DNA of 64,000 bases, from positions 1,302,001-1,366,000 of the forward strand of contig NZ_CP074380.1 of NCBI RefSeq assembly GCF_022695595.1, read 5' to 3'. Source of the stretch: Streptomyces sp. MST-110588 (GTDB lineage Bacteria > Actinomycetota > Actinomycetes > Streptomycetales > Streptomycetaceae). A program made the position numbers and the translations under genes. The notes below the pieces were generated by a model. That model had not been told where the DNA came from, did no database searches, and worked only from the letters and a program-made list of their open reading frames with translations. Within the stretch, counting starts at the first letter, position 1; every line of letters starts with the position of its first letter. Of this stretch, positions 24,572 through 27,313 are shown piece by piece.

Positions 24572-27313
24572 TCACCGCCGGGACACTTCCTGAGCCCCGG
24601 GCCCCGCGAGGCGTTCGACCTCGCCTCCGGCGGTCCGGCGGGCCCGCTCACCGGTGCGGTACATCCGGGAACCCGCCGGCCCGTACGGATCGGCGACGAA
24701 GCGGGCGGCGGTACGGGCCGGGCCGCGTACGTACCCGGTGGCGAGCGACGCACCCGCGACGTACAGCTCGCCCGGGACGCCGGGCGGGCAGTGCCGCAGA
24801 GCCGCGTCCAGGACGTACAGGCGGGTGTTCCATATGCACTCGCCGACGGCGGTCACCGCTTCGGTGCCGACGGTGCCGGCGATGTCGATCGTGGCGACCG
24901 TGGCGGCCGTGGCGGCGGTTCCGGCGCTGCCGGCCGTGGCGGCTTCCTCGGTGAGGACGAGTGTGGCTCCGGCGCGCAGCGTCCGGAGGATGTCGACCAG
25001 GTCGTCCGTCATGTCGTCCGTCATGTCGTCCGCTGCCTTGCCCGTCCCGCCGCCCGGCTCCCCGTACGGCACCCGCTCCCCGGCCCGCGGCCCGTACATC
25101 TCCTGCGACCAGCGCAGCCGGTTGTCCAGGGCCGAGTGCGCGAGGAGCACTCCTGTGGGGCGGTCGCCGCCTGCCGCGGAGCGGGCACGGGGGTAGCCGA
25201 CGCAGGCCGGGTGCCGCGGGGTGAGCGCGCGGCCCGGGTCGGTGGGCAGGTACGCGGACAGATCGGTGCCGTCGACGAGGACCACGGAGGTGACCGCGGG
25301 GGTGCCGGCTCCGGCGGCGAGCGCGGCCCGTACGGCGGGTGCGGTGGCCGTGTCGGTCAGGAGGCGGACCGGCCCGGCGTCGGCCGTCGCGTACGCCAGG
25401 TGGCCGGGCGGACCGTACGGATCGAGCGGCAGACAGGCGCCGCCCGCCTTGAGCACCGCCAGCAGGGCGACGATCCGGCCGACGCAGCGGGGCAGCACCA
25501 CGGCGGCCACCGTGCCGGGCCGCACGCCCAGGGTCTTCAGATGCCGTGCGAGACGGTTGGCGCGGGCGTTGAGTTCCGCGTACGTCAGGTCGTGGGCGCC
25601 GTCCGTCAGTGCGACGGCGGCCGGGGTCCGGCGCACCCGGGCCTCGAAGGGACCGATGAGCGTGGTCGGCGGAAGGTCGCGCCGGGTGGCGTCGAGGGCG
25701 TCGCGGAGCGCGGCGCGTTCGTCGGCGGTGGCGGTGTCGTGGCCGGCGAGCGGGGTGTGCGGGTCGGCCCTGGTGAGGCTGGTGAGCAGGTGCAGGAAAC
25801 GGTCCTGGTGGGCGGCGAGTTGGTCCTCGTCGTAGAGGGCCGGGTTGGCCTCGTGCACCAGACGCAGGCCACCGGCGGCACGCGTCCCCGCACGGCCGTC
25901 CGCATCCCTGTCGGCACGCACGTCCGCACGCCCGTCCGCATGGCCGTCCGCATGACTGTCGCCACGCCCGTCCGCGTGACTGTCCGCGTGGACGGTGAGC
26001 GCGAGGTCCTCCACCGGCCCCGACGCAAGGGGACGGACCCACGAGGGCGCGCCCGCGAACACCGGCCCGCGACCGCCCGGCAGCACCGTGACCGGCGGTC
26101 CGGCCACCGCTCGCGCGTCCGGCAGGCCGAGGTCGCGCCGCAGGTCGGCCGGCCGGTAGCGCTGGTGCCCGCGGGCGGCGCGGATGCCGAGGACGACCTG
26201 TCGGGTCAGCTCGGCGAACGTCCGGTCCGGGGTGACCGTCAGGGGCAGCGGCAGAACGTTGCGGGCCAGGCCGGGGACGCGCAGGGCGGCGGGCGCGGTG
26301 CGTCCCATCACCGGCAGGCCGAGTACGACGCGCGCCGAGCCGGTGGCCCGCGAGAGGTACAGCGCCTGCGCGGCGATCAGGACGTCGGTCGGCCCGGCGC
26401 GTACGCAGGAGGCCAACTCCCGCAGGGCGGTGATGGCTTCGGGGGCGAGGCGGACCTCGCGGCGCAGCGCGGCGCGGGACGCGGGTGCCGTACGGCCGGC
26501 CGGTGAGGGAATGTGCGGGTGCTCCGCGAAGACCGCACCCCAGTAGGCGCGGTCCCTGTCGTACGCCTTGGAGGAACGGTACGCCGCGTCCTGCGCGACG
26601 AGGTCGGCGAGCCGGCCGAAGGGGCTGGGGCCGGGGGCCCGGCCGTCGGCGAGGGCGGTGTAGACCTCGGCGACCCGGCGGGCCAGCAGCCCGAGCCCGA
26701 AGCCGTCCATGACGGCCTGGTGCACGCGCTGGTACCACAGCCAGCGCTCTTCCCCCGTACGGAAGAGCGCCTGGGCGAACAGCGGCCCGGTGTCCAGCCG
26801 GAAGGGTTCGCCGAGGTCGGCGCGCATCCACGCCCCAGCCAGGGCGTCGGGGTCGGCCGAGCCCCGGAGGTCGAAGACGCGCAGCGGGAACGGCACCGCC
26901 GCCCCGCCGTCACCGGATGCCGACGCGCCGTCCGCCCGGCCCGGGCCCACCGGCTGCCGGTACGCCTGCCCTCGGTCCGCCGGCCCCCGCGCCCCCTGCC
27001 ACCGGTCCGCCGGCAGGCCGTTCTCCACCACCAGGGGCCGTGGCACCGGGCCGATGAGCAGCGGCACCTGCCGCGGCCCGTCCGGCGTCCCGGCGAACCG
27101 CACCCGCAGCGCCTCGGCCTCGCCGGCCACCCGGTGCAGCGCCAGCGCGAACACGGCGGCCTCCAGCGGGCCGTGGATCTCCACGCAGGTGCCGGTGTTC
27201 TGCGCCGGGCTGTCCGGGTCGAGGGCGTGGGCGTGCCACAGCTCCGACTGGGCGGCGGTGAGCGCGAGGCCCGGCGCCAGCGCGCCGACGGCCGCATCGA
27301 GCAGGGCGGTCAC
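24572..27313 (-). CDS. Degenerate NRPS C-A protein (pseudo-module)
   Basis: 913 residues, fully open. The first about 430 residues are a condensation domain close to the DHB-accepting first C domain of the large [18 protein letters not shown] aligns with [14 protein letters not shown]. Its active-site motif reads HQAVMDG, so the catalytic second His of HHxxxDG is Gln. An A domain follows (about 480-913) but is eroded. The A3 loop is replaced by a stretch ending GGDRPTGV (lysine lost), the A4-A5 pocket is replaced by Asp/Met/Thr and Ala/Thr repeats, A7 is YRTGE, and the protein stops before A8, A10 and any T domain. The start is GTG 27313, overlapping the aryl carrier stop as GTGA, so the two are co-translated. 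It is likely a non-catalytic partner of the carrier protein, or possibly a decaying gene. Confidence 0.8.

What the first reader, a model, noticed from the sequence alone, without database searches (positions are those of the whole stretch)
24572..27313. Open-reading pseudo-NRPS (C with dead His, eroded A) coupled to the aryl carrier protein
The protein aligns with the DHB-accepting C domain of the cluster's own NRPS, but the catalytic His of HHxxxDG is Gln (HQAVMDG), and the following A domain has lost the A3 lysine loop, the A4-A5 pocket, A8 and A10. Despite this, 913 codons stay open without any stop, in the operon, with a GTGA overlap to the carrier. The lost pocket is filled with low-complexity repeats rather than frameshifts. 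That suggests selection for a non-catalytic role, such as a scaffold presenting DHB-carrier to the NRPS, a gatekeeper, or a second docking site. The published griseobactin cluster reports a DhbG protein; I cannot tell from memory whether it is the same thing.
Basis: partly seen in the sequence, partly recalled or inferred. Interest (0 to 1): 0.78.

Follow-up and report, generated by a model that had tools for sequence, protein, structure and literature searches.

The report
Gutted enterobactin synthetase kept beside carrier
This Streptomyces gene is what is left of an enterobactin-type peptide synthetase after another synthetase probably took over its job; it can no longer work as an enzyme, yet a much smaller leftover of the same gene is clearly preserved by selection in a related genus, so such gutted enzymes may keep a useful non-catalytic role.

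Summary
Window 27313-24572 (minus) is an open 913-codon condensation-adenylation (C-A) protein with HQAVMDG, no A3 loop, no A4-A5 pocket and no PCP-TE. It is the positional orthologue of EntF/EnsF, the serine module of Streptomyces enterobactin clusters, in a locus with a DhbF-type NRPS that probably replaced it. It is not DhbG, which is the carrier protein. Neighbouring genes evolve normally; the remnant is accelerated, unevenly: C and A1-A2 omega about 0.2, A3-A4 0.5-0.7, background 0.08-0.10 (assumed branch length). EntF remnants recur. S. indicus has the same composite locus with an open remnant that lost C. In Kitasatospora the gene is a 247-300-aa piece of the A domain: in 15 of 16 DhbF-bearing genomes and 0 of 54 others, open and ArCP-overlapping in 15 of 15, omega 0.10. 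So a selected, non-catalytic, EntF-derived protein tied to the ArCP exists, but its core is A1-A2, not the C scaffold first proposed. Whether the window copy is such a protein or a late relic is unresolved; I favour the former slightly. Apparent frameshifts in DhbF and DhbE are probably assembly errors.

The parts
24572..27313 (-). EntF/EnsF-derived C-A remnant, 913 aa, GTG start
25994..27268 (-). Condensation domain (approximate bounds); 126 of 160 near-invariant sites kept (135 of 170 over the wider range)
26702..26722 (-). HQAVMDG, catalytic second His replaced by Gln
25888..25987 (-). 12/24-bp tandem repeats (HADG-type) inserted at the end of C, absent from the three references
25193..25672 (-). 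A1-A2 subdomain of A (approximate bounds); linker plus A1-A2 keeps 48 of 54 near-invariant sites; the part kept in Kitasatospora pseudo-A proteins
25151..25198 (-). A3 ([10 protein letters not shown]) disrupted by 4-aa insertion, Lys lost (approximate bounds)
24836..25057 (-). A4-A5 region: about 50-60 codons lost, low complexity in their place (approximate bounds)
24572..24631 (-). truncation at A8 (stop); A9-A10, PCP and TE absent
27310..27540 (-). stand-alone aryl carrier protein (the DhbG/EnsB2 counterpart), GTGA overlap with the remnant
27549..28181 (-). isochorismatase without ArCP (DhbB/EnsB1)
28261..30501 (-). DHB-activating enzyme (DhbE) ORF; apparent frameshift near 28479
30141..31982 (-). 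isochorismate synthase (DhbC)
31963..32757 (-). DHB dehydrogenase-like SDR (DhbA)
32946..35315 (+). FecCD-type permease
37245..39059 (-). MFS exporter
39146..46615 (-). DhbF-type NRPS (C-A-T-C-A-T-TE), 1819 of 2390 aligned residues identical to S. hiroshimensis, 3 apparent frameshifts (45391, 42257, 39945), 0 stops
23591..24553 (-). phosphopantetheinyl transferase

Best explanation
The gene is the EntF (EnsF) orthologue of an enterobactin-type operon (dhbA-C-E-B-ArCP-entF). A neighbouring DhbF-type NRPS probably took over the use of DHB-ArCP, and EntF then lost serine activation, its carrier and its thioesterase, and at some point the C-domain His (order inferred from uneven omega). The remaining protein is catalytically dead, probably made in step with the ArCP through overlapping codons, and was probably still selected for a non-catalytic role for much of its history. 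In the wider family the constrained core is the N-terminal A subdomain (A1-A2). Proposed mechanism (inference only): this subdomain acts as a chaperone or docking partner for the free ArCP, the DHB ligase, or a DhbF A domain or its MbtH partner. The C part is an optional extra that S. indicus and Kitasatospora lost. Shown here: orthology, domain loss, neighbour constraint, uneven constraint, and the selected Kitasatospora end state. Not shown: replacement as the cause, any binding partner, any phenotype, or selection on the window copy today.
For: Position: EntF or its remnant overlaps the ArCP stop in 18 of 18 chosen loci, and a pseudo-A follows it in the 5 griseobactin-type loci. Constraint on the window branch is uneven, and neighbours are not relaxed: E 0.044, C 0.051, A 0.070, B 0.046, ArCP 0.040, backgrounds 0.048-0.086. 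0 frameshifts and 0 stops against two of three references. Kitasatospora pseudo-A: 15 of 70 genomes; 15 of 15 open and overlapping the ArCP; omega 0.10, neutral tips worse by 205 lnL units; in 15 of the 16 genomes with a DhbF orthologue and 0 of 54 others; 50 protein clusters. In L089 it is last in its operon, so coupling to a downstream gene does not explain its conservation there.
Against: The C tree branch is 0.54 against 0.22 for sisters, while neighbours give 0.16 against 0.15-0.20. 34 of 160 near-invariant C sites changed, 20 to G/A/R/P; C and A1-A3 lose them alike (34 of 160, 14 of 59, p 0.71). The window keeps 32 of 33 EntF-invariant A1-A2 residues that pseudo-A also keeps, but remnants in loci without an ArCP hit keep 32 (A1277) and 33 (S. 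halstedii) of 33, so this does not discriminate; I lowered this reading from 0.52 to 0.50 for it. C of A1277 and A0958, without ArCP hits, also has omega 0.34 and 0.36, below 1. No relative above 54% identity exists in the protein search to test present-day selection. Synonymous sites are near saturation, so omega needed an assumed t; A3-A4 rests on 63 codons beside indels. Three other remnants carry frameshifts: A0958, S. silvae, S. cinnamoneus.
Confidence: 0.5

Rival explanations
1. Pure relic: EntF lost all function after DhbF took over. The C-A fragment is drifting and simply has not acquired a stop yet in GC-rich DNA; different lineages keep different scraps.
For: Acceleration limited to this gene; near-invariant C sites changed at 21% against 1-3% in six intact proteins; low-complexity expansions; recurrent remnants in separate lineages, some frameshifted and some without an ArCP hit; long stop-free stretches are common here.
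Against: No stop is expected in only 1.7-5% of neutral simulations, and all indels are in frame against two of three references. C and A1-A2 are more constrained than A3-A4 on the same branch. The Kitasatospora counterpart is strongly constrained.
Confidence: 0.4
2. One reading: the dead C domain is the working part, a scaffold or gatekeeper that presents DHB-ArCP to DhbF.
For: C omega about 0.2 on the window branch; most of the C fold is modelled with confidence; overlap with the ArCP.
Against: C is absent from the syntenic S. indicus remnant and from the 15 Kitasatospora counterparts. C keeps near-invariant sites no better than linker plus A1-A2: 135 of 170 against 48 of 54, p 0.16.
Confidence: 0.06
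3. Still an enzyme: a trans-acting C domain that tolerates Gln at the second His.
For: Some free-standing C domains are recalled to tolerate loss of this His (VibH; recalled, not checked).
Against: His is invariant in the 115 intact relatives. No own A, PCP or TE is left. Conserved C-lobe sites are eroded, 59 of 83 kept at 291-440.
Confidence: 0.02
4. Sequencing or assembly artefact makes an intact EntF look eroded.
For: The assembly shows 15 apparent frameshifts in 321 kb of coding sequence against 4 in 383 kb of other loci.
Against: The erosion is by substitutions, in-frame indels and a missing PCP-TE; frameshift-aware alignment finds no frame in which the lost parts return.
Confidence: 0.02

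Closest known systems
EntF / EnsF (serine module C-A-PCP-TE of enterobactin clusters; S. varsoviensis ens cluster, PMC10188961, passages)
   Same: Operon order and ArCP overlap, C and A homology, best hits 47-54%
   Different: Catalytic His, A3, A4-A5, A8-A10, PCP and TE lost
Kitasatospora-type 'AMP-binding protein' of griseobactin-type clusters (P0122-P0171), called pseudo-A here (my name)
   Same: EntF-derived, directly after the ArCP, A3 lost, in clusters with DhbF, open
   Different: Only the A1-A4 piece, 247-300 aa; C and A6-A8 gone; under strong selection
S. indicus remnant (P0173, source labels 'AMP-binding protein' and 'Enterobactin synthetase component F')
   Same: Same composite locus (DhbF, MFS, FecCD, dhbACEB, ArCP, remnant), frame ends near A8
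   Different: C domain lost; neighbour genes do not make it a sister of the window
DhbG of the griseobactin cluster
   Same: Same kind of cluster
   Different: DhbG is the stand-alone ArCP (passage of PMC12210187), here 27310-27540
X domain of glycopeptide synthetases (recalled)
   Same: A non-catalytic C-type domain with a recruiting role
   Different: Not compared by any search; no P450 partner examined here

Membership tests
EntF/EnsF orthologue (by descent) | directly follows the ArCP in a dhbACEB operon, overlapping codons | tested here: met
EntF/EnsF orthologue (by descent) | best homologues are C-A-PCP-TE EntF-type proteins | tested here: met
EntF/EnsF as a working enzyme | HHxxxDG | tested here: not met
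   HQAVMDG; the 115 intact relatives have HH
EntF/EnsF as a working enzyme | A3-A10 motifs, PCP and TE | tested here: not met
Kitasatospora-type pseudo-A family | EntF-derived A1-A2 core, A3 lost, next to the ArCP, DhbF in the cluster | tested here: met
Kitasatospora-type pseudo-A family | shares the family's derived residues or clusters with it | tested here: not met
   3 of 19 derived residues shared; separate long branch in the A-region tree, with low support nearby
Kitasatospora-type pseudo-A family | purifying selection at present | tested here: inconclusive
   met for 13-15 Kitasatospora copies; no close relative of the window copy
DhbG | aryl carrier protein | tested here: not met
   Condensation and AMP-binding hits only; the ArCP is the neighbour
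Griseobactin-type cluster (for the locus; feature list recalled) | dhbACEB, separate ArCP and a C-A-T-C-A-T-TE NRPS | tested here: met
   the published cluster itself was not compared
Griseobactin-type cluster (for the locus; feature list recalled) | product is a DHB-Arg-Thr trimer | not testable with these tools
   structure recalled; A-domain specificity not computed

The most novel reading that the evidence does not exclude
Catechol siderophore clusters that switched from EntF to DhbF kept the N-terminal adenylation subdomain of the dead EntF as a required, non-catalytic subunit, co-translated with the free aryl carrier protein. Kitasatospora shows the finished form, and the window and S. 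indicus show two less reduced forms reached separately.
Probability: 0.4. Interest if true: 0.72.

Novelty: new variant of a known kind. Interest (0 to 1): 0.55.

Why it matters
If the selected pseudo-A protein has a role, NRPS assembly lines use a dead adenylation fragment as an accessory part, a kind of pseudoenzyme of which I saw no report in five searches of an open-licence library (listings only, the first two cut at 12 papers; most subscription papers are not held). It would also suggest how an NRPS cluster changes product: the old module is hollowed out in frame rather than deleted. The Kitasatospora gene is small, conserved and, in the locus examined, last in its operon, so a clean deletion can test it directly. 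If it proves functionless, it is still a warning that an open frame in GC-rich DNA is poor evidence of function.

Tried and rejected
DhbG identity: rejected; the original griseobactin paper is not held. C-only scaffold: thought unlikely because C is missing in the S. indicus and Kitasatospora counterparts. Compensating frameshifts inside the gene: none against two of three references; the third uses one at each end. That tool also called one frameshift in the variable N-terminus of an intact control, L046.

Real breakage of DhbF: not excluded, but 3 frameshifts with 0 stops and 76% identity, in an assembly with more apparent frameshifts than other loci, point to assembly errors. The rate is 15 in 321 kb of coding sequence over 20 stretches, against 4 in 383 kb over 20 other loci; 4 of the 20 stretches were chosen for NRPS genes, and the other 16 give 8 in 246 kb. 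Several sites lie beside runs of G or C. A first version of the segmentation found no events at all because direct frame changes were penalised too much; the settings were changed, which recovers the three DhbF events.

dN/dS: the window branch is near saturation at synonymous sites. A free fit gives C omega 0.071 at t 7.1 and A (N part) 0.315 at t 2.9, so t was fixed at 2.5 and 3.1 after the neighbours (2.5-3.8); the C and A1-A2 omega values quoted depend on this. The excess of kept residues shared with the pseudo-A family is confounded: remnants without an ArCP hit show it too, and it weakens within segments. Structure models were made with alignments of relatives and do not discriminate; no fold search was run. 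Papers: PMC12210187, PMC10188961, PMC8236941 and PMC7190385 seen as passages only; other papers only as search listings.

Full report
What is there. The feature is on the minus strand, 27313 to 24572: 913 codons, no stop, with Condensation and AMP-binding matches. It follows a stand-alone aryl carrier protein and precedes a phosphopantetheinyl transferase. Upstream lie isochorismatase, DHB ligase, isochorismate synthase and an SDR. About 12 kb away is a DhbF-type NRPS, C-A-T-C-A-T-TE, with an MFS exporter and a FecCD permease between.

What it is by descent. In a search of 5.8 billion proteins the best hits are Streptomyces C-A-PCP-TE proteins of about 1,300 aa, 47-54% identical; apart from itself, none of the 120 listed is closer. 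In S. varsoviensis the same operon ends in EnsF, and the strain makes enterobactin (passages of PMC10188961). The genome scan by C-domain similarity kept the best 80 of 172 relatives. I took 55 of these as EntF loci (L015-L068, L077); 48 show HHxxxDG, A3, PCP and TE motifs by regular expression. The seven that do not are L021 (A3 pattern only), L027, L033, L034, L048, L063 and L067. The codon overlap between ArCP and this gene is ancestral: 18 of 18 chosen loci. So the gene is an eroded EntF. The published DhbG is the carrier, not this protein (passage of PMC12210187).

What is lost. The second His of HHxxxDG is Gln, against His in the 115 intact relatives aligned. Near-invariant sites kept: C 1-180 49 of 54; C 181-290 27 of 33; C 291-440 59 of 83; linker plus A1-A2 48 of 54; A3-A4 27 of 55; A4-A5 4 of 47; A6-A8 35 of 47. 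The low-complexity stretch within C is shared with S. lycii; the repeats at the end of C are not in the references. The frame stops in A8 and PCP-TE are gone.

Rates. On a tree of four neighbouring genes the window branch is ordinary (0.158; relatives 0.151 and 0.195), but on the C-domain tree it is 0.542 against 0.218 and 0.217. Codon fits by my own script give neighbours omega 0.04-0.07 on the window branch. With t fixed at 2.5, C is about 0.20 in both parts, A1-A2 0.25 and A3-A4 0.7 (0.5 if t is 3.1); background 0.076-0.095. Read simply, the catalytic A segment went free early while C and A1-A2 stayed constrained longer. The estimate depends on an assumed t, and A3-A4 has only 63 codons.

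Is openness surprising? Neutral substitution of the inferred amount leaves no stop in 1.7-5% of simulations, and no frameshift is seen among 15-16 indels against two of three references. Against this, long stop-free stretches are common in this DNA, and the case was picked because it is open.

Other remnants. S. natalensis keeps only C, with HRLALDG. S. halstedii and A1277 keep open C-A with A3 Lys lost, and no ArCP hit in the locus. S. atroolivaceus has a C-A piece ending in an MbtH-like tail. A0958, S. silvae and S. cinnamoneus carry frameshifts. So decay of EntF is recurrent, and an open remnant can persist where no carrier gene is found in the locus. There, C of A1277 and A0958 has omega 0.34 and 0.36.

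Where DhbF sits near the operon. Among seven such loci (window, S. indicus L164, and L085, L086, L089, L090, L092) none shows an intact EntF after the ArCP. In a group of species with both NRPSs (L018, L019, L021, L036, S. triculaminicus, S. klenkii, S. roseoverticillatus, S. cinnamoneus) the two lie apart. There EntF aligns without frameshift or stop in the three newly fetched loci L160-L162 and has all four motifs in L018, L019 and L036, but lacks the A3 pattern in L021 and is decaying in S. cinnamoneus. S. indicus has the window's composite locus and a 397-aa open remnant that has lost C and A3.

The conserved form. In L085, L086, L089, L090 and L092 (titled Streptomyces or Kitasatospora) a 252-267-aa reading frame directly follows the ArCP; it is the A1-A4 piece of EntF with A3 replaced. 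The protein search lists 92 hits; 50 clusters (P0122-P0171, 63-94% identical) are taken as this family, mostly Kitasatospora, labelled AMP-binding protein. Of 70 genomes in the genus of L089, 15 hold it, the five loci above among them. All 15 are open, without frameshift in the aligned part, and overlap the ArCP. In three of them the longer match runs over one stop: the C-terminal end is ragged. Omega is 0.10 over 13-15 copies, tip lengths 0.26-2.05; ArCP 0.03. DhbF orthologues (77% or more identical, E up to 1e-235) occur in 16 of the 70; 15 of these hold pseudo-A, and the exception has DhbF at a contig end; the other 54 lack it. In L089 it is the last gene of its operon, facing an antisense reading frame. 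Residues 23-140 are modelled with fair to good confidence, most of the rest poorly.

Reading. A selected non-catalytic protein made from EntF and tied to the ArCP exists. The window copy is at the same place and in the same kind of cluster, but it shares only 3 of 19 derived residues and is not shown to be of the same origin. I judge it somewhat more likely to be, or to have long been, such a protein than a mere relic. What it binds is a guess.

Assembly. Apparent frameshifts are 15 in 321 kb of coding sequence in 20 stretches of this genome (8 in 246 kb without the four chosen for NRPS genes) and 4 in 383 kb in 20 other loci. Those in DhbF and DhbE are therefore probably errors; the target shows none.

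Noticed in passing
window 39945, 42257, 45391 (DhbF), about 28479 (DhbE), about 12728: Apparent frameshifts in otherwise conserved genes; this genome shows 3 to 4.5 times the frameshift density of other Streptomyces loci.
   Followed up: partly
L089:7690-8481, L165-L179, P0122-P0171: Conserved truncated adenylation protein (pseudo-A), omega 0.10, tied to DhbF-type clusters in Kitasatospora.
   Followed up: partly
L048, L063, L067: dhbA, C, E and B stay at normal identity while the ArCP gives no hit and EntF is broken; DHB may serve another use there.
   Followed up: no
L033:9551-11521: S. natalensis: C-only remnant with HRLALDG beside a dhbA-like gene, with no hit for dhbC, E, B or ArCP in the locus.
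   Followed up: no
window 24572-24631, L034, L063, L159, L164: Several EntF remnants end or break near motif A8, as if this were a preferred break point.
   Followed up: no
window 45391-46615; L089:9944-17233: First C domain of DhbF reads HHxAVDA instead of HHxxxDG in both window and L089.
   Followed up: no
window about 38900-39110, minus: MbtH-like reading frame after DhbF, recognised by eye only.
   Followed up: no
L089:8503-9822, minus: Reading frame that looks by eye like an M20-type amidohydrolase, between pseudo-A and DhbF.
   Followed up: no
window 18453-20579, minus: DUF5107 and TPR protein near the siderophore cluster.
   Followed up: no
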